IMG/VR virus record: IMGVR_UViG_3300028802_000052
Location: 1 to 25,866 of that record
From: a virus
Reading direction: 5' to 3' (one strand)
DNA: 25,866 nucleotides
Numbering within the stretch: position 1 is the first letter of the stretch; each line of letters begins with the position of its first letter. Shown one piece after another: positions 3,103-25,866 of the stretch. A model generated the notes under the pieces. It saw only the letters and a program-made list of their open reading frames with translations. It was not told the DNA's origin and searched no databases. The position numbers and the translations under genes were made by a program.

Positions 3103-3501
3103 TCAGCCCGCGGCGGCGGCCTTGAGCTCGCGGCCGATCCTGATGATCTCCGCGCGGGCGTACGGGTCGAGCCGCGCGAGCTGCGCACGCGACCACGCCG
3201 TGTCCGCCACGATGAGCATGTGCTGCGCGGCCCGCGTGGCCATCGCCGTCCAGTAGGTCGGGTTACGCGCCCACACCGACCGCGTCACCAGCTGGCCGCA
3301 GTAGTCGTAGTCGGTGAAGGTCGACAGCGTGTGCGCAGCCTGCAGCCGGGCCTGCTGCACCGCGGTACGTGACTGCACTGCGACCTGCCCCGCGCCGCCG
3401 CAGGAGTAGCACCGGCCGTTTTCGCGGTGACTCCAAAACCAGAGCGTGCCCTTGCCGTCGCACTTGCCACACGCTGCGGTCGTCGTCTGCGTCGTCGTCA
3501 T
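3103..3501 (-). CDS. DnaJ-type zinc-ribbon small protein
   Basis: This 132-residue protein has two zinc knuckles resembling the DnaJ/anti-TRAP Cys-rich motif: CGKCDGKG (C11, C14) and CYSCGGAG (C31, C34). The rest is probably helical (about 45-130) and ends in KAAAAG. The open frame continues upstream to 3942, but the stretch before ATG 3501 runs through the repeat-rich intergenic region and has an atypical His/Cys/Thr composition. ATG 3501 is therefore preferred, although its SD is weak. The gene is divergent from the partition-like operon and shares its upstream repeats. Such small zinc proteins in phages often act in DNA binding or protein-protein contacts; no specific function can be assigned. 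Confidence 0.72.
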   Translation of the reverse strand: MTTTQTTTAACGKCDGKGTLWFWSHRENGRCYSCGGAGQVAVQSRTAVQQARLQAAHTLSTFTDYDYCGQLVTRSVWARNPTYWTAMATRAAQHMLIVADTAWSRAQLARLDPYARAEIIRIGRELKAAAAG

Positions 3502-3518
3502 GTCTTGAGCATGACGGC

Positions 3519-3740
3519 ATTTGTGCAAACTTGCAAATGTGCACGCGTGTGCACCGGCACGCTTGCTCATTGGCACGGCTGCACACTGGCACGTGTGCAC
3601 GTGTGCTGGTGTGGATCCGTGCGTGACCTGGTGAGGATCCGTGCACGGGTGCAAGCGTGCTGGCGTGGACGCGTGCCGGCTTGCCGCCGTGCACGCCGCT
3701 TGTGCGTAAACGCAAACCGCGCTAACTTGCGGAAACGCAC
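3519..3740. repeat. Cluster of degenerate direct and inverted repeats (candidate centromere/iterons)
   Basis: The divergent intergenic region is packed with GTGC/GCAC-rich repeats. Two 17-nt copies (3606-3622 and 3628-3644) differ at one base and lie 22 bp apart, about two helical turns; a third copy at 3660-3676 matches 14 of 17. A 15-mer pair (3570-3584 and 3586-3600) matches 12 of 15. An inverted TGCAA/TTGCA pair sits at 3524-3535, and an outer GTGCGT/ACGCAC pair brackets the promoter. This resembles partition sites of ParA plus ribbon-helix-helix systems or replication iterons; which one cannot be told from sequence. Confidence 0.6.
3700..3728 (+). promoter_or_regulatory. Candidate sigma70-like promoter of the partition-like operon
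   Basis: TTGTGC (3700-3705) and TAACTT (3723-3728) are separated by exactly 17 nt. Transcription would start near 3735, just before an AGGAG ribosome site (3741-3745) and ATG 3757. The elements lie inside the repeat cluster, between outer GTGCGT and ACGCAC half-sites, so autorepression by the ribbon-helix-helix protein is plausible. Confidence 0.5.
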
Positions 3741-3756
3741 AGGAGCACGCCCCGCC

Positions 3757-4164
3757 ATGCAGACACTCGCTGTCCCCGCCGCACAGCAGCCCTTGATCGT
3801 CACGAGCTACCAGCTGGCCCGCATCAGCAACGTGCACGTTGACTTGTGTCACCGCTGCGCAACCGCCGCCGACCACGACTGCGGCGATCTCGGGCCCGTG
3901 GCCCGTGGCCCGCACCGCGGCCAGTGCCACGGCGTCAAACACTCTGCGCCGGTACGGTGCGAGTGTGGCCAGTGGTCCGGCGAGCCGTGCGACGACGTAG
4001 CGCCCGCCGATACGATGGTCACGATCGAGGTGACGCCGCTATCAGAGCGCCACGCGGATGGCGGGGAAGGTGCAGCGATGATCATCCGCGTCACGGGTGA
4101 ATGCGCGGCATGGATCATCGAGGCCGATCCGTCGTGGTCACGCATCGCGATCGGTGCGCTGTGA
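3757..4164 (+). CDS. Cys-rich small protein, first gene of the partition-like operon
   Basis: This 135-residue protein has seven cysteines in its first 80 residues: CHRC (C31, C34), C42, C57, CEC (C68, C70) and C78, with interspersed His. It probably binds one or two zinc ions. The C-terminal 50 residues look like a small alpha/beta region (MVTIEVTP, MIIRVTGE, AWIIEADP). The frame is open upstream to 3427, but ATG 3757 has AGGAG 11 nt before it and follows a good promoter. The stop overlaps the ParA start by GTGA (4161-4164), so the two are coupled. I do not recognise the family. Its position ahead of parA suggests an accessory or regulatory role in partition, by inference only. Confidence 0.72.
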   Translation: MQTLAVPAAQQPLIVTSYQLARISNVHVDLCHRCATAADHDCGDLGPVARGPHRGQCHGVKHSAPVRCECGQWSGEPCDDVAPADTMVTIEVTPLSERHADGGEGAAMIIRVTGECAAWIIEADPSWSRIAIGAL

Positions 4165-4922
4165 GCCGCGCCCGCGTGATCGCGGTGACGAATCAGAAAG
4201 GCGGCTCGTGCAAGACGGCGACCGCGGTCAATCTCGCGGCCGAACTCGCCGCGCGCGGGCGGCGCGTCTTGCTGGTCGACCTTGACCCACAAGGCAACGC
4301 GTCGACGTACGTAGGCCAGCGATCGGACGGGCGCGCGCTGCTCGACGCCCTGACGACCGGCGGGCCACTCACGGTCACACGTGCAGACTGCGGCGTAGAC
4401 GTGGTCGCGGCGGGCGAATGGCTCTCGGCGGCGGACAAAATGCTCGCGCGAGAAGTCGGGGCCGAAACCATCCTACGTACGGCGTTGCGGGCCTTGCCGC
4501 GTCGCTGGGATGTCGTGCTGATCGACTGCCCCCCGAGCATGGGGATCCTTTCTGCGATGGCGCTTACCGCCGCCCACGCGGTGCTCGTACCGGTGCTCAC
4601 CGAGGCCGCGGCCTTGGAAGGTGTGGCGCTCATCATGCGCACGGTCGAGCGCGTGCGTGCGCGGCTGAATCCGCAGCTCGCGGTCGCAGGCGTGATCGCG
4701 TCGCAGACGAACACCACGCGGCTGTCGCGCAGCGTCGAGGCCAAGCTGCGCACGCAGCTCGGTGACGACGTGTGCTCGACCGTGGTGCGCCGCAACGTGG
4801 CGATCGCAGAGTCGTACTCACACCAGCAGCCGATCCGCCTATATGCGCCCGACTCGATCGGCGCGACCGATTACGCCGCCCTAGCCGCAGAACTGACGAA
4901 ACGTAAGCAGGTGACAGCATGA
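4161..4922 (+). CDS. parA: ParA-family partition ATPase (small type Ib-like)
   Basis: This 253-residue protein contains the ParA/MinD signatures: deviant Walker A KGGSCKTA (13-20), Walker A-prime DLDPQGN (40-46) and Walker B VVLIDCPP (118-125). It lacks the N-terminal DNA-binding extension of P1-type ParA, matching the short chromosomal/type Ib plasmid class. ParA proteins bind DNA non-specifically as ATP dimers and move plasmid cargo. The Walker A is unusual: the glycine before the invariant catalytic lysine is Cys, and the residue after the Thr is Ala where Thr or Ser is usual; both lysines remain. GTG 4161 is chosen because it overlaps the previous stop as GTGA; an ATG 60 nt upstream (4101) would add 20 unlikely residues. 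An ATGA overlap leads into the ribbon-helix-helix gene. Confidence 0.9.
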   Translation: MSRARVIAVTNQKGGSCKTATAVNLAAELAARGRRVLLVDLDPQGNASTYVGQRSDGRALLDALTTGGPLTVTRADCGVDVVAAGEWLSAADKMLAREVGAETILRTALRALPRRWDVVLIDCPPSMGILSAMALTAAHAVLVPVLTEAAALEGVALIMRTVERVRARLNPQLAVAGVIASQTNTTRLSRSVEAKLRTQLGDDVCSTVVRRNVAIAESYSHQQPIRLYAPDSIGATDYAALAAELTKRKQVTA

Positions 4923-5299
4923 GCCGCCCCGCCCTAGCCGCCGATCCGTTCGAAGCCGTCACCGCACCGCCGCAGCCTGCAGCCGCTCGAGGCCGCAAAG
5001 CCGCGCCCGTGCCGGCTGCCGCGGTCGGCTCGGCTGCTCACCGCGTAGGCACGATCGCGACCCCGTACACGCGGCAAGACGGCGTGCAAGTGCGCCAGTG
5101 GTCCGCAACGCTGCCCGTAGATATCGTCGAGGCGCTGCAGATCGCGTCGATTCAAGAGCGCCGCAGGCCGGCGGACATCGTTGCCGACTTGATCGCTGCG
5201 CACTGCGGGCTGCAGCCTGCGGCGGCACCGTCGCCCAAGCCGCGCGCGGCCAAGACTTCCACCACCAAGCCCAAGCCCCGTAAGACCCGCAAACGTTAG
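4919..5299 (+). CDS. Ribbon-helix-helix protein, probable ParA partner
   Basis: This 126-residue protein begins with an Ala/Pro-rich tail (1-55), followed by a compact region at about 58-95. That region reads as a beta strand (VRQWSATLPVD) and two helices (IVEALQIASIQER and PADIVADLIAAHC), the order of a ribbon-helix-helix fold. The C terminus (103-126) is strongly basic with KPKPRKTRKR. It lies directly after parA with an ATGA overlap, where ParG/omega-type centromere-binding partners are found. In those systems the ribbon-helix-helix dimer binds repeats upstream of the operon, represses it and stimulates ParA ATPase. The repeats at 3519-3740 are the natural target here. It is not a ParB with an HTH domain. 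Confidence 0.68.
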   Translation: MSRPALAADPFEAVTAPPQPAAARGRKAAPVPAAAVGSAAHRVGTIATPYTRQDGVQVRQWSATLPVDIVEALQIASIQERRRPADIVADLIAAHCGLQPAAAPSPKPRAAKTSTTKPKPRKTRKR

Positions 5300-5834: not shown

Positions 5835-6212
5835 ATGCTTTTGAAGCCTACCCACACATGTTTTGACGACGTGCTCGACTTTTTCGCCGGCCTGACTGAT
5901 CCGAAAGCGCGAGATCTACATGTCGTCGTGCATGGGATCTGCGTGCTGCCGGACGGCTCGCGCATCGCGCATGCATGGCTTGAGCGGACGGACGTCGAGT
6001 TCGTGATCGAAGGGATGCTGCTCGGACCTACGAAGGTGTACCACGCGATCCCGCGGGCGACATTTCACGAGCGTTGGACGGTCGAGCGCTGCACCCGATA
6101 CACGCTCGCCGAGGCCATCGCGCAGAACGCCGCCCATGATCATTTCGGCCCGTGGGATCCTGAATATGCGGCTTTGTGTACGCCTCGATCAGGGCTTGGT
6201 GAGCTTCTATGA
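5835..6212 (+). CDS. Small hypothetical phage protein
   Basis: This 125-residue acidic protein (MLLKPTHTCFDD) has GGAG 10 nt before its start. The first half could form a small alpha/beta fold (LHVVVHGICVLPDGSRIAHAW near 28-48), followed by EFVIEGMLLGPTKVY. No catalytic motif is evident. Its stop overlaps the next start by ATGA at 6209-6212, so the two small proteins are co-translated. Function unknown. Confidence 0.65.
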   Translation: MLLKPTHTCFDDVLDFFAGLTDPKARDLHVVVHGICVLPDGSRIAHAWLERTDVEFVIEGMLLGPTKVYHAIPRATFHERWTVERCTRYTLAEAIAQNAAHDHFGPWDPEYAALCTPRSGLGELL

Positions 6213-6493
6213 CGTATCCCGAGCGCCCCGAGGCCCTGTACTGGCGCGCACTCGACGACGACCACGAGATCACCGTGTATCGCATGGGCCTCAACACGCG
6301 CGTGTGCATGGGCGAGCGTGGCACGTTCGGCGCGATCCTCGATGCGTGGTGCTATCTCGATCCGCGGCGCGCCATGGAAGCGGCCGCCGCTTGGAGCGGC
6401 AGCGGCGATCCTATCGATGGCTGGCACCGCAATCCGATCACGGGTCGGCGGCGTGAAGGTGGCGATCCTGCGCGGGAATATCACCGCTGGTAA
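6209..6493 (+). CDS. Small hypothetical phage protein
   Basis: This 94-residue protein, rich in Trp, Arg and Asp, is coupled to the preceding gene by an ATGA overlap. The C terminus (about 71-94: GWHRNPITGRRREGG then DPAREYHRW) resembles a short basic and aromatic tail that I associate with small early-region phage proteins, but I cannot name a family. No transmembrane segment is visible. The conserved-looking tail and tight coupling argue that it is real. Confidence 0.6.
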   Translation: MTYPERPEALYWRALDDDHEITVYRMGLNTRVCMGERGTFGAILDAWCYLDPRRAMEAAAAWSGSGDPIDGWHRNPITGRRREGGDPAREYHRW

Positions 6494-6541: not shown

Positions 6542-7375
6542 ATGCGGTTAGGCACTGTGACGGCGGGCTGTATAGCTGGCGTGGTGGTGGCGTGTGCAGG
6601 TCCGGGCCTCGATGCGATCGGCGACGGCATGCGGGATGCTGGCGCAATGCTCGCCGGTCGTGATGCTGGTGGCGTAGGCGGCGCTGCAGGGATTTCGCAG
6701 CCATCGGCGGCAGGCAAAAGCGCCGCCGTAGGCGGCACGGGCGGCACGGCCCACAGTGTGACCGTTGACGCCGGGCGCATGGTCGTTGACGCCGGGCAGG
6801 CGATCGTCGACGCGGGTCACGCCGTGGATGCGAGCCGCGCCGTGCTCGCGCAAGACGCGGCCGAGCCTGCGGGCGACGGGCTACCGCGGCCGCATTGGGT
6901 CTTGCGCGGCGCGGACGGCGCAGCGGTGCAAGCAGACGTCGTGCCGGGCTATGCCGCGAGTGCCGATCGATTCATCGATGCGCCCGAATGCGTGTACGTC
7001 CAACACGTTGGCCAGCGGCGAATCGGGCTGTCCTATCAGCTCGCAACGGGCAAACTATCGGTCGCGGGTGAATGCAATCAGAGCGCCTCGACACTGATCG
7101 CGACGTGGCATGACACAACGCAGGCTTATTACCTCGACGACGTATGCGCCGGCCCCGCGTACGTGCCATCAGCGGGGATCGTGCTCACGGTGGGCTCCAT
7201 CCCCTATTACTCCGCAGGTGTGCCGGTCGTCGTCACAGCCTACCGGTGGCAGGCCTCGACGCAACAATGCGTGCAGCTGTCGGGCCCCGTGACCATGTGG
7301 CCTTACACGACTGTGCCCGCCACCGTGACCGAGCTGCTGTCCCACGCCCCCTACTCGATCACGCTGGTTTACTGA
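6542..7375 (+). CDS. Predicted exported lipoprotein with DAG repeats
   Basis: This 277-residue protein starts with a short Arg-led hydrophobic stretch ending in the lipobox VVAC, with C18 as the predicted acylated residue. Mature residues 18-110 are Gly/Ala/Asp-rich low complexity with DAG repeats about every 7 residues (76, 83, 90, then DAS at 96). Residues 115-277 look like a secreted beta-rich domain with paired cysteines (C150, C178, C202, C244). The mature protein would sit on the host membrane, so lysogenic conversion or superinfection exclusion is a reasonable guess. The ATG lies only 6 nt after a TAAGAT -10-like element (6530-6535) and has no clear SD; a leaderless message or a later start is possible. 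The family is not recognised. The 21-bp DNA periodicity in the DAG region suggests repeat expansion. Confidence 0.65.
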   Translation: MRLGTVTAGCIAGVVVACAGPGLDAIGDGMRDAGAMLAGRDAGGVGGAAGISQPSAAGKSAAVGGTGGTAHSVTVDAGRMVVDAGQAIVDAGHAVDASRAVLAQDAAEPAGDGLPRPHWVLRGADGAAVQADVVPGYAASADRFIDAPECVYVQHVGQRRIGLSYQLATGKLSVAGECNQSASTLIATWHDTTQAYYLDDVCAGPAYVPSAGIVLTVGSIPYYSAGVPVVVTAYRWQASTQQCVQLSGPVTMWPYTTVPATVTELLSHAPYSITLVY

Positions 7376-7764: not shown

Positions 7765-8766
7765 CTACGGCGGCGCTTGGGCGTGCTGTTGGGCACGGCG
7801 TGCCGCGGTCGAGCCGTAGGGGGCCCGCACGAAAGGCAGCGTGTCGTCGCAGGCGGCGGCGGCGACGTCGCGCAGCATCGCGTATTGGACGATCAGCGCG
7901 GGCGGCAGGCGGCCACCTTCCACGGCCCGCCCGGCACGGTCACGGCCTACGATCTGGTAGGTCGCCGTGGGATAGCCCGAGTCGCCGATCTCCCACGGTT
8001 CGCAGTGCCGGGCGATCTGCGCGGGCGTGCGCCACTGGTGCCGCTCGATCGCCCCGGCGAGCTCGAGGGCTACGCCGTAGCCGATGTCGCCCGTTTCCAA
8101 GGTGTCATCGGCCCCGCGATGGTTCCATGCGCTGCGCGACGGGTGGTGATGTTGGCACCGCCGGCAGTACGGGTCGCCGTCGTGGACGTCGCGAATCATG
8201 CGCAGCAGCGTGCACACGCTGACGCCGCGGACCACGCCCGCCCTTTCGAGTTCCGACTGCAGCCACCCGAGCGTGAAGGTCCGGCGGGCGCGCAGCGCTG
8301 CGCGGTTCGTGCCTACGACCGTGTACCGGTGCGTACCGTCACCGAGCGGCACTACGGCGGCGTACCACGAGGCCCCCGCGGCCTCGGCGCGACCGTTTGC
8401 GGACATTTCCCGGACCGTCCAGCGGATGCGCTCGCCGGTCGGATCGGTCAGGTGCAGCTGCGATCCGATCCACAGCTCGCGCCGCAGGTCCGGGGGCAGC
8501 GGCAGCGGCGGCGCGTCGAGGCCGCCGTGCGTCCGCAGCCAAGCCTTGCGGCGGCCGTCCAGGCGGGCCATGGCGGCCTCGGGCGGGCGGGCCTGACGCT
8601 GGGCGGCCGCTCGAGCCGCCCGTGCCGCTCGAGCCGCGTCGCGTTCCGCGCGGCGGCGGTCGCGTCGAGGCACCAGCTCTGCAAAGTGCAGCTGGTCTTC
8701 GTTCTCGTTTTCGCCTAGAAGTAGCTGCACTACGGATCGCGTGTGGTGCGTGACGTGGTGGGGCAC
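7765..8766 (-). CDS. Orphan minus-strand gene, putative cargo (moron-like)
   Basis: This protein of up to 333 residues has an Arg/Ala-rich, probably helical N-terminal region (33-70), a central beta-rich part (LWIGSQLHLTDPTGERIRWTV, 98-118; THRYTVVGTN, 145-154), and a possible zinc site with C201, C204 and H206-H208. The last 100 residues contain YGVALELAGAIERHQW and WEIGDSGYPTATYQI. I do not recognise the family. The first start is GTG 8766; GTG 8730 (then QLLLGENENED) is an alternative, and neither has a convincing SD. It stands alone between plus-strand genes with its own terminator, as lysogeny-expressed morons often do. The complementary strand also has a long open frame, which I judge to be a shadow. 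Confidence 0.65.
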   Translation of the reverse strand: MPHHVTHHTRSVVQLLLGENENEDQLHFAELVPRRDRRRAERDAARAARAARAAAQRQARPPEAAMARLDGRRKAWLRTHGGLDAPPLPLPPDLRRELWIGSQLHLTDPTGERIRWTVREMSANGRAEAAGASWYAAVVPLGDGTHRYTVVGTNRAALRARRTFTLGWLQSELERAGVVRGVSVCTLLRMIRDVHDGDPYCRRCQHHHPSRSAWNHRGADDTLETGDIGYGVALELAGAIERHQWRTPAQIARHCEPWEIGDSGYPTATYQIVGRDRAGRAVEGGRLPPALIVQYAMLRDVAAAACDDTLPFVRAPYGSTAARRAQQHAQAPP

Positions 8767-15086: not shown

Positions 15087-15460
15087 CAGCCGCCCCCTAT
15101 CGTCTCGGAAAGCGTCAGCATGCCTTCGCCCCCTGCGGAGTAGAGCACCGACGCTGTGACCGTCAGCACGCGCCGTAGGCCATCGAACGTGAAGCGCAGA
15201 TCGGTGACGTCTTTCACTCCCGGCGTCTCGCGCGAGGCCTTGGCATACAAGCCGCGCACGACCGTCATAGACGGGTTTTTGATCAGAATCAGATTCTGAT
15301 AGTCAATCCCAAGCGACCGATCGCGAAAGCATTCACCGAGGAAAAGCGTCAGGTGCGTTTGCCATGCCTGCGCGACTGCGGCAGCACCGGTCACGAGCTG
15401 CGCCTTACCGCCGATGAGTAGCAGGTCGTCAGTCGCGGGGTCGATCGCTAGGTCGCTCAC
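15086..15460 (-). CDS. gp25/gpW-like baseplate wedge protein
   Basis: This 124-residue protein has the size and pattern of GPW_gp25 domain wedge proteins. The N-terminal strand ...DLLLIGGKAQLVTGAAAVAQ leads to helix QAWQTHLTLFLGECFRDRSLGIDY. The C-terminal strands follow as VTDLRFTFDGLRRVLTVTASVLYS. gp25-like proteins nucleate sheath polymerisation at the baseplate. GTG 15460 is chosen because it forms a GTGA overlap with the upstream fibre stop; extension to 15523 would run into that gene. It sits before baseplate J as usual, but after an inserted fibre gene rather than directly after the spike. Confidence 0.85.
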   Translation of the reverse strand: MSDLAIDPATDDLLLIGGKAQLVTGAAAVAQAWQTHLTLFLGECFRDRSLGIDYQNLILIKNPSMTVVRGLYAKASRETPGVKDVTDLRFTFDGLRRVLTVTASVLYSAGGEGMLTLSETIGGG

Positions 15461-16746
15461 GTCAGCACCGTTCCTATGCTTGCCGCCCAGATTTCTCCGG
15501 GCGATGTCCCCCCACCGTTCCAACCACTGGCTATAAACAATTTCTGATCGCGTCTGCGCACATAACTAATATTGCCAAAGGTCCCCGACCCGCCCGGCAA
15601 TGGCGTTCCGCCCGGAACGCTCGTCATTTTGAAACGAACAATCGAGCCGTCCTTTAGAAAAGCCAGATCGGGCGCAAACGTTGACGCGGTGAAATTAGCA
15701 GACCCCATCGTTTGATATATGGCCGACTCTGTAACTAACATCGCGTTACCTGTGTTAGGGATGTCTGCCCCTAAATCCAAGGTGCGTGCCCAGGTGATGC
15801 CGTCCTGTGACTGATAGATTTTGGCCGTGGTCGCCGATTCCCAATTGAGCATCACGAAACCAACGCCTAACAGATAAGCGATATTCGGCATGATGCCATG
15901 CCGCACTGTCGCTGCAGGCAACGGGCGCACCGTCCACGTCACTCCATCCGGCGACGTATATACGTCACCGTTGCTGACTCCCCCATTAGGTGCGACGAAC
16001 AAACCCGCGCCGTATGCAATCGCCCCCGACATGACAACGGGCAAAGCGTTAGTGGTTAGCGTCCAGGTAACGCCCCCGTCTGTGCTTCGATTGAGATCGC
16101 GAGCTTCTAACTGCACGAGCACGCCCGAACCATTGTTCGCGATCATCCCTTGACCGTACACCCCGGAACCACTGGGCGTGATAGTCGACCATGCCGCGCC
16201 ATCCGCCGTCCAGCGCAGCGTTGACGCCACGCCGAAACCGATAAATCGCGACGATTGCGGCACCCACAGCACGCGCTGAATGTTCACCGCTACGGCTAGG
16301 CCCCATGCAGGAGACGCCAACACGTCAGGGTTTACCGACGTCGCTGTACTTGCGCCGCCCAGAACAACGATCAGCCGCCCAGTTAGAGGATCGGCCGCTG
16401 CCTGACCTAACTGCGCAGTCCCCGGCGGGATCGCGCCTTTATGCAGGTTGCAGAGCGCGAAGATCTCCGCGCGCACTTGCTCGCGGTAAAGCTTATTGTC
16501 TGTCGTATCCGCGCGCGTCGTCAGCGCTGCGATCTGCGTCGTGTGCGTGCCTAGCGTCGTCGTGTGGGAATCGACAGTCGTGTCAAACCACGTGGTCCAC
16601 AAGTGCACGAGGTTCTGCCAGTAGTTGAAAAACGACGCAGGCGGCTGCTCGCCCGGCACCCAGCCCTGCGCTTTTTTGCCGTCTGACGGCTCGAGGATCG
16701 ACGCTGCGCCGGTTGCCCATGTGGGGAGCTTGGAAGGTTTAGGCAT
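15457..16746 (-). CDS. Asp-box (BNR-like) tail fibre/receptor-binding protein
   Basis: This 429-residue protein begins with a module (8-50: LPTWATGA, GWVPGEQPPASFFNYWQNLV) shared with the 525-residue fibre. A short coiled-coil-like segment rich in Thr follows (about 55-90). The remainder has four Asp-box motifs: TADGAAW (180-186), STDGGVTW (221-228), SPDGVTW (265-271) and SQDGITW (313-319). Asp boxes mark beta-propeller repeats in sialidases and in binding proteins; with four visible and no sialidase catalytic set recognised, carbohydrate binding is safer than catalysis. The coding DNA is clearly more AT-rich than its neighbours. It lies between the spike and gp25 genes, an odd place for a fibre; a baseplate-tip adhesin is possible. 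Confidence 0.75.
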   Translation of the reverse strand: MPKPSKLPTWATGAASILEPSDGKKAQGWVPGEQPPASFFNYWQNLVHLWTTWFDTTVDSHTTTLGTHTTQIAALTTRADTTDNKLYREQVRAEIFALCNLHKGAIPPGTAQLGQAAADPLTGRLIVVLGGASTATSVNPDVLASPAWGLAVAVNIQRVLWVPQSSRFIGFGVASTLRWTADGAAWSTITPSGSGVYGQGMIANNGSGVLVQLEARDLNRSTDGGVTWTLTTNALPVVMSGAIAYGAGLFVAPNGGVSNGDVYTSPDGVTWTVRPLPAATVRHGIMPNIAYLLGVGFVMLNWESATTAKIYQSQDGITWARTLDLGADIPNTGNAMLVTESAIYQTMGSANFTASTFAPDLAFLKDGSIVRFKMTSVPGGTPLPGGSGTFGNISYVRRRDQKLFIASGWNGGGTSPGEIWAASIGTVLT

Positions 16747-25211: not shown

Positions 25212-25505
25212 TCAGGTCGCGCGCGGGCCGATCGTGGTGCTGCGCACGAGCTTCAAATATTGGCGTTCATACGTGGTCGACGCGCCGCCCGGCTCGGTCG
25301 ACTCGACCAGCCGGGCGAACTCGCCGTGCGGTGCCAGCGCGATCAGGTGGCACGCGTAGTACTTCACCGCGTCGTCGATCAGGCCGCCCAGCGCATCGCC
25401 GCTGATGAGCCGCTGCGCGTCGGCCAGCTTGTAGCCGATGAGTTCCGATCTCGTGTTGGCGAACTCGGGAAACTCGGCCTTGATCTGGTCGACGGTCACG
25501 GTCAC
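25212..25505 (-). CDS. Head-tail adaptor (DUF4054-like)
   Basis: This 97-residue protein (VTVTVDQIKAEFPEFANTRSELI) shows the DUF4054 pattern: a helix after FPEF, ADAQRLISGDALG, a helix YYACHLIALAPHGEFA (53-69) and a C-terminal TTYERQYLKLVRST. These helical proteins form the connector ring below the portal. GTG 25505 is chosen since it makes a GTGA overlap with the upstream gene; the frame upstream runs through that gene and is rejected. Confidence 0.82.
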   Translation of the reverse strand: MTVTVDQIKAEFPEFANTRSELIGYKLADAQRLISGDALGGLIDDAVKYYACHLIALAPHGEFARLVESTEPGGASTTYERQYLKLVRSTTIGPRAT

Positions 25506-25825
25506 GGCATCGCCTCGCACTCGGGCGTGGTGGTCGTGGGATCTGCTTCGGGTGGCGGCGGCGGCGGCGCGACGTACGCCACCAGGTACCCCGCGTCGAA
25601 CCACGCCTGATAGATAGGCTGATAGGTCAGCTGGAACGTGTAGCGCGCGGCTTGGTCGGCATTCAGCACGTATGCCGCAGGTGGGTCGAGCAGTGGCTCG
25701 AACACCATATAATCGCCCTTGAGGATGCCGATCGACAGCATGCGATCCGTCGTGTTGGACAGCTGCACGAGCGTCGATCCATCGGGCGGCGTTTCCCCGT
25801 CTATGAGCTTTGGCAGTAGCGGCAT
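25502..25825 (-). CDS. Small Pro-rich head-region protein
   Basis: This 107-residue protein (MPLLPKLIDGETPPDGSTLV) ends in a proline-rich stretch (86-92) and PTTTTPECEAMP. The middle (DYMVFEPLLDPPAAYVLNADQAARYTFQLTYQ) may be beta. Its position ahead of the DUF4054-like gene suggests a head or neck accessory protein, but I do not recognise the family. AAAGG upstream of ATG 25825 is a plausible ribosome site. Confidence 0.55.
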   Translation of the reverse strand: MPLLPKLIDGETPPDGSTLVQLSNTTDRMLSIGILKGDYMVFEPLLDPPAAYVLNADQAARYTFQLTYQPIYQAWFDAGYLVAYVAPPPPPPEADPTTTTPECEAMP

Positions 25826-25834
25826 GTGTCGGCC

Positions 25835-25866
25835 TCAACCTTTCCGCGCGCGTGGCGTCACTCGTC
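25835..25866 (-). CDS. Possible end of an upstream head gene (partial)
   Basis: One minus frame runs from the window edge and ends in TGA (25837-25835) after ...VTPRARKG, a plausible basic C terminus 9 nt before the next start. Only ten codons are visible, so this is tentative. Confidence 0.25.
   Translation of the reverse strand, partial: RVTPRARKG

What the first reader, a model, noticed from the sequence alone, without database searches (positions are those of the whole stretch)
3502..5299. Partition-like cassette with Cys-rich leader, ParA, ribbon-helix-helix protein and upstream repeats
Overlapping genes encode a Cys-rich protein, ParA and a ribbon-helix-helix candidate downstream of repeats and a promoter. 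On a contractile phage this suggests a plasmid prophage state. The Cys-rich first gene is not part of known ParA/ParG or ParA/omega operons that I can recall, so it may be a new partition component.
Basis: partly seen in the sequence, partly recalled or inferred. Interest (0 to 1): 0.75.

Follow-up and report, generated by a model that had tools for sequence, protein, structure and literature searches.

The report
Phage partition cassette with octamer centromere
This contractile-tailed phage carries a plasmid-style partition cassette (a ParA motor, a small DNA-binding partner and a repeat array it probably binds), and relatives carry further copies of such arrays in front of their structural genes, which hints that the partition protein may also help silence the phage.

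Summary
The cassette is real. ParA (4161-4922, Soj-like, 253 aa) overlaps by 4 nt a small protein (4919-5299) predicted to be ribbon-helix-helix (RHH). Upstream lies an array with exact 8-bp period (3506-3695; z = 7.0, 0 of 1000 shuffles reach it). Two relatives that look complete (49.9 and 48.2 kb) keep ParA, the RHH protein and a period-8 array before parA. They have no tyrosine or serine integrase and carry a DUF3854/DUF927 primase-helicase and an XRE repressor candidate. A more distant relative has an integrase and no ParA. I read this as a parABS cassette of a phage-plasmid, working like mycobacteriophage RedRock, whose parS sites are also 8-bp repeats. The Cys-rich first gene is probably real, but absent from both relatives and every database searched, so it is unlikely to be a core partition part. 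The new element lay outside the finding: each complete relative has six period-8 arrays, mostly at head/tail gene junctions and beside parA; a close relative of the window phage has its own set. The same scan finds only the two known sites in RedRock's first 50 kb. The RHH protein may be both centromere binder and silencer; this is untested.

The parts
3506..3625 (.). octamer array, block 1: 15 contiguous 8-bp units, GC at the centre of 13; proposed parS/operator
   Evidence: period 8 autocorrelation z=7.0, 0/1000 shuffles; unit listing
3640..3695 (.). octamer array, block 2: 7 units in a second phase
3700..3728 (+). candidate promoter TTGTGC-17-TAACTT
   Evidence: by eye; same spacing and place as TTGTGA-17-TATCTG before parA in L002 (sequences); consensus scan negative
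3757..4164 (+). Cys-rich 135-aa protein, first gene of the operon in this phage only
   Evidence: best codon score of six frames, GC3 0.81; no homologue found
4161..4922 (+). ParA, 253 aa, Soj-like, no N-terminal HTH; Walker A at residues 13-19 (KGGSCKT)
   Evidence: PF13614 2.1e-43; Thermus Soj 1wcv 4.3e-47; 60% identical to relatives
4919..5299 (+). predicted ribbon-helix-helix centromere-binding protein (ParB role)
   Evidence: 42-44% identical to relatives at the same place; RHH topology; weak RHH structure hits

Best explanation
A parABS partition cassette of a temperate phage kept as a low-copy plasmid. Shown by sequence: a ParA ATPase gene, a small partner gene with RHH topology, and an upstream array of contiguous 8-bp units conserved in position and period in three phages. 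Inferred: RHH dimers coat the array, one per octamer; the coated array is the centromere and also represses the adjacent operon promoter; the disordered N-terminal tail of the RHH protein contacts ParA and stimulates its ATPase, and nucleoid-bound ParA positions the phage-plasmid before division. In relatives the same protein probably also coats about five further arrays, most at gene junctions of the head and tail region; whether these act as extra centromeres, silencers of late genes, or both is open. The Cys-rich protein is a lineage-specific passenger or modulator of the operon, not a core part.
For: ParA family hits. RHH topology and RHH-type structure hits. Period-8 array z 6.3-7.0 upstream of parA in all three phages. 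RedRock, an experimentally studied phage parABS, has parS loci of eight 8-bp direct repeats recognised by ParB (PMC7157519), and the same scan recovers exactly two period-8 loci flanking its parAB. Relatives G001 and G002 have terminal direct repeats of 44 bp (exact) and 191 bp (190/191); G001's two ends fall inside one intact gene of G002 and G002's ends are contiguous in G001. Neither has PF00589 or PF00239. Primase-helicase; XRE repressor candidates. Relative G004 has an integrase fragment and no ParA hit. RHH partition proteins of known systems bind arrays that overlap promoters or act as operators (PMC9499535; PMC7308502).
Against: The RHH model has low overall confidence (mean pLDDT 56) and structure hits have E near 1. 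No binding, stability or copy-number data. The window is a fragment without its own replication region. Only three genomes with this ParA/RHH pair were found; scans of bacterial genomes found none, so the host and the plasmid state are unobserved. Type Ib ParAs are usually shorter than 253 aa.
Confidence: 0.8

Rival explanations
1. Dual-use extension: the RHH protein is at once centromere binder and silencer of phage gene expression. Dispersed arrays before head and tail genes work like stoperators, so plasmid maintenance and repression of the lytic programme are run by one protein.
For: Six arrays of up to 14 units in each of G1 and G2 at matching positions; 20 shuffles of G1 gave no run longer than 4 units. 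Nearly all lie outside conserved coding alignments, directly before or between structural genes such as tube and maturation protease. G3, a close relative of the window, has window-like arrays at the maturation-protease and portal starts (z 6.7 and 5.4) and others. Within G1 the head-junction and parA arrays share 85% of 8-mers while the parA array of G1 shares 6% with the window's. RedRock has only its two parS loci in 50 kb. Omega of pSM19035 uses six parS sites overlapping promoters.
Against: No expression or binding data. Separate XRE repressor candidates exist. The window has no array at the sheath/tube junction. In the window lineage the similarity between loci is modest (w vs G3 0.11-0.41; w vs G1/G2 0-0.19).
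Confidence: 0.35
2. The Cys-rich protein is a true new partition or control component, for example a zinc-binding modulator of ParA or of the array, in this lineage.
For: First gene behind the candidate promoter, overlapping parA by 4 nt; coding statistics fit.
Against: Absent from the two relatives with the cassette; no homologue; model unreliable (mean pLDDT 48.5).
Confidence: 0.12
3. ParA and RHH are an orphan regulator pair of a lytic phage, with no plasmid state.
For: No lysogen or plasmid was found.
Against: XRE repressor candidates, primase-helicase, absent integrase in relatives that look complete, integrase instead of ParA in G004.
Confidence: 0.12
4. The period-8 repeats are unrelated to the cassette, for example packaging sites, replication-origin iterons or a dispersed repeat element.
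For: They are dispersed and occur away from parA in relatives.
Against: An array sits directly before the parA operon in all three phages; RedRock and omega/ParG precedents; the 18-mer GCTCATGAGCTCATGAGC occurs in only seven contigs of the 2.9 million, most of them clearly of this phage group.
Confidence: 0.1

Closest known systems
RedRock-type parABS of cluster A actinobacteriophages
   Same: parA then small parB with RHH-like C terminus on an integrase-less temperate phage; parS made of 8-bp repeats (PMC7157519; both loci recovered); the cassette stands where relatives have an integrase
   Different: RedRock ParA is 185 aa and aligns only over the Walker region (49% over 45 aa); ParB not detectably related; arrays only at the two parS loci in the 50 kb scanned, none dispersed among structural genes; RedRock is a non-contractile siphovirus (from memory)
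delta-omega parABS of plasmid pSM19035
   Same: ParA plus RHH ParB; several parS arrays that overlap promoters and also serve in expression control (PMC9499535)
   Different: 7-bp non-palindromic heptads there, 8-bp GC-centred units here; delta and omega have their own promoters there, one overlapping operon here
ParF-ParG-parH of plasmid TP228
   Same: ParA then RHH protein with flexible tail, centromere made of an array of degenerate boxes, RHH protein also represses its operon (PMC7308502)
   Different: ParF is 206 aa and only weakly similar (4dzz 6e-6); the boxes are tetramers with AT-rich spacers
Soj (Thermus, Helicobacter) chromosomal ParA
   Same: closest solved ParA by sequence (1wcv 4.3e-47; 6iub 3.8e-31)
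   Different: partner there is an HTH ParB (Spo0J), here a predicted RHH protein
Stoperators of mycobacteriophage L5
   Same: one regulator with many sites spread over a phage genome (PMC6550527)
   Different: those are 13-bp single sites of the immunity repressor, not partition arrays

Membership tests
ParA partition ATPase | Deviant Walker A (KGGxxKT) in a ParA/MinD-type ATPase | tested here: met
   KGGSCKT at residues 13-19; PF13614 2.1e-43; 1wcv 4.3e-47
Type Ib ParABS | ParA without N-terminal HTH | tested here: met
   ATPase domain starts at residue 5
Type Ib ParABS | Short ParA of about 190-215 aa | tested here: not met
   253 aa, the length of Soj-type ParA; so I call it type-Ib-like, not a type Ib member
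Type Ib ParABS | Small RHH centromere-binding protein downstream of parA | tested here: inconclusive
   right place and RHH topology, but low-confidence model and weak hits
Type Ib ParABS | Iterated centromere upstream of parA | tested here: met
   period-8 arrays in three phages, z 6.3-7.0
Type Ib ParABS | Partner binds the array and the cassette stabilises a replicon | not testable with these tools
   needs binding and plasmid-stability assays
RedRock-type phage parABS | parS of contiguous 8-bp repeats | tested here: met
RedRock-type phage parABS | Arrays flanking both sides of parAB (parS-L and parS-R) | tested here: not met
   no period-8 array directly after the RHH gene in window, G1 or G2
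RedRock-type phage parABS | Homologous ParA and ParB | tested here: not met
   ParA similar only in the Walker region, ParB no significant match
Phage-plasmid | No integrase in the complete genome | tested here: met
   for relatives G001 and G002, tyrosine and serine families only; the window itself is a fragment
Phage-plasmid | Autonomous replication function | tested here: inconclusive
   DUF3854/DUF927 primase-helicase in relatives; such genes also serve lytic replication
Phage-plasmid | Observed extrachromosomal prophage | not testable with these tools
   no host genome with the element found
Spo0J/KorB-type HTH ParB system | ParB with ParBc/HTH domain next to parA | tested here: not met
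   no ParB domain in the partner; G1 has a ParB_N domain only in a distant methyltransferase

The most novel reading that the evidence does not exclude
In this phage family one RHH protein serves as centromere-binding protein and as genome-wide silencer: octamer arrays placed before head and tail genes are coated in the prophage, so partition and lysogenic silencing are one mechanism, and array sequence and RHH specificity diverge together between lineages.
Probability: 0.33. Interest if true: 0.78.

Novelty: new variant of a known kind. Interest (0 to 1): 0.57.

Why it matters
It extends the RedRock principle (integrase exchanged for a partition cassette with 8-bp repeats) to an unrelated contractile-tail phage group with a different ParA. 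The dispersed arrays turn an open question, whether partition proteins of phage-plasmids also control the lytic genes, into a binding and reporter test with defined DNA sites.

Tried and rejected
Cys-rich protein: searches in viral contigs, phage records, Pfam, PHROGs, NCBIfam and the proteins of six related contigs gave nothing; single-sequence model unreliable. RHH profile against PDB sequences: none. Both bacterial-genome scans (RHH alignment; C-terminal half of ParA): none. Period-8 tile near the end of G4: a run of C, rejected. The loose GC-centred criterion (6 of 8 octamers) also gives hits at control periods, so I rely on runs of 7-8 and on high-autocorrelation tiles. Toxin-antitoxin reading (weak BrnA-antitoxin hint for the L002 RHH protein, E 0.054): no recognisable toxin gene next to it. 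The wider set of ParA-bearing viral contigs shows many Soj-like ParAs with small downstream proteins, several RHH-like, but of the 26 loci examined only L002 and L003 have a period-8 array upstream.

Full report
The window is an IMG/VR virus record, 25,866 bp, with no end repeats. Its + strand starts with a PD-(D/E)XK exonuclease, a Sak4-like ATPase and a 202-aa protein at the place of a single-strand-binding protein (the last by position only). The - strand from 10 kb on holds tail fibre, baseplate, hub, tape measure, tube, sheath and neck genes, so the phage is contractile. The finding lies between these blocks.

Observation. Three overlapping genes are present as described. ParA is unambiguous: PF13614 at 2.1e-43; the nearest solved structure by sequence is Thermus Soj, 4.3e-47. 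It has no N-terminal HTH. The 126-aa protein has no family match. Its model, from an alignment of three sequences, is disordered at the N terminus, then strand, helix, helix at pLDDT about 70-76. Most informative structure matches are RHH proteins (Arc, CopG, VapB, AmrZ, CdbA, MatP), each weak. I treat RHH as likely, not proven.

Repeats. The divergent intergenic region 3502-3756 has an exact 8-bp period: 48% self-match at shift 8 against 27% expected, z = 7.0, none of 1000 dinucleotide shuffles as high, periods 7 and 9 below background. Units are GC-centred: 13 of 15 contiguous octamers over 3506-3625, then a second block 3640-3695. It is the only period-8 tile of this strength in the window. 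A candidate promoter follows at 3700-3728; the consensus scan did not call it, but the same layout stands before parA in L002.

Relatives. A scan of viral contigs with ParA gave two close loci, L002 and L003, in contigs of 49.9 and 48.2 kb (G001 and G002; G1 and G2 below). Both encode ParA at 60% identity and the small partner at 42-44%, and carry a period-8 array before parA with a different unit, TGAGCTCA. Neither has the Cys-rich gene; in both, the array stands directly before parA. The Cys-rich ORF looks coding but has no relative anywhere searched. The claim that it is a new partition component is therefore not supported.

Lifestyle. G1 has a 44-bp and G2 a 191-bp (190/191) terminal direct repeat. 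G1's ends fall inside one intact gene of G2, and G2's ends are contiguous in G1, so both maps look complete and circular. Neither has a tyrosine or serine recombinase, with controls positive. G1 has a large DUF3854/DUF927 primase-helicase with a Cch-type HTH hint (88% identical homologue in G2) and an XRE repressor candidate (homologue in G2). A scan with the sheath protein found further contigs. G003 (G3) is a near relative of the window (exonuclease and Sak4 96-97%) that ends just before the parA locus; it too has an XRE repressor candidate. G004 (G4) is more distant, has an integrase fragment at its end and no ParA. ParA replacing integrase is the pattern described for cluster A mycobacteriophages (PMC7157519). 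Both G3 and G4 are fragments, so the exchange is suggestive only.

Dispersed arrays. Six array loci, with runs of 5-14 units, exist in G1 and six at matching places in G2. Twenty shuffles of G1 gave no run above 4 units. Apart from the one before parA they lie at gene junctions: before the maturation protease, between sheath and tube, before the 43673-45529 gene, before the gene homologous to window 25212-25838, and near the start of the RecD-like helicase. G3 carries arrays of the window's type at the maturation-protease start (z 6.7), at the portal start (z 5.4) and at further places. In G1 the head-junction and parA arrays share 85% of 8-mers, while the G1 and window parA arrays share 6%. 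Between window and G3 the sharing is modest (0.11-0.41) but higher than between window and G1/G2 (0-0.19). This is what one trans-acting binder per lineage would produce; the evidence is strong for G1/G2 and moderate for the window lineage.

Comparison with the known. In RedRock, ParB recognises two parS loci of eight 8-bp direct repeats, the phage lacks an integrase, and the prophage replicates extrachromosomally (PMC7157519). The same scan recovers exactly two loci, one on either side of RedRock parAB, in the first 50 kb and nothing else, which is both a positive control and a contrast. RedRock ParA is 185 aa and related only in the Walker region. Omega of pSM19035 uses six parS sites of 7-bp units that overlap promoters, and four or more contiguous repeats are needed for full ParA activation (PMC9499535). 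ParG coats an array of degenerate boxes and also represses its operon (PMC7308502).

Verdict. Ordinary in principle (a phage parABS with RHH partner and 8-bp array), new in lineage and in the dispersal of arrays among structural genes. Shown: genes, array, period, conservation, dispersal, absence of integrase families in two relatives. Inferred: binding, partition, autorepression, silencing. The Cys-rich leader remains unexplained and is lineage-specific.

Noticed in passing
G1 (L004-L006) 17715, 34766, 37886, 41714, 45531; G2 (L007-L009) 15456, 19153, 23021, 26109, 42930; G3 (L108-L109) 16338, 20065, 22175, 23255 (contig coordinates): Octamer arrays like the one before parA at gene junctions of the head/tail region and a helicase; possible dispersed centromeres or silencer sites.
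   Followed up: partly
window 15457-16746 (-): Tail-fibre-like protein 99.5% identical to G2 while most other proteins are 46-85% identical: recent exchange of a tail gene.
   Followed up: no
window 6209-6493 (+): 94-aa protein 93% identical to G1, far above its neighbours, and at a different place in G1: recent transfer.
   Followed up: no
window 7765-8766 (-): 333-aa protein without family match, conserved at 63% in both relatives near the cassette; possible replication or control protein.
   Followed up: partly
window 3103-3501 (-): Protein with a DnaJ-type zinc-finger hint, divergent from the cassette; the array lies in the shared intergenic region and may control both.
   Followed up: no
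window 3701-3741: Inverted repeat TGTGCGTAAACGCAA / TTGCGGAAACGCACA around the candidate -10; possible site of a second regulator.
   Followed up: no
L110:51-407 (G004): Truncated tyrosine integrase at the contig end of a sheath-related phage that has no ParA hit.
   Followed up: partly
window 6542-7375 (+): Lipoprotein-like 277-aa ORF with signal-like start and DAG-rich 21-bp tandem repeats.
   Followed up: no
L010, L012, L013, L014, L015, L017, L019, L020, L023, L025, L026: Soj-like phage ParAs followed by a roughly 90-130-aa protein with RHH-like C terminus, without a period-8 array upstream.
   Followed up: partly
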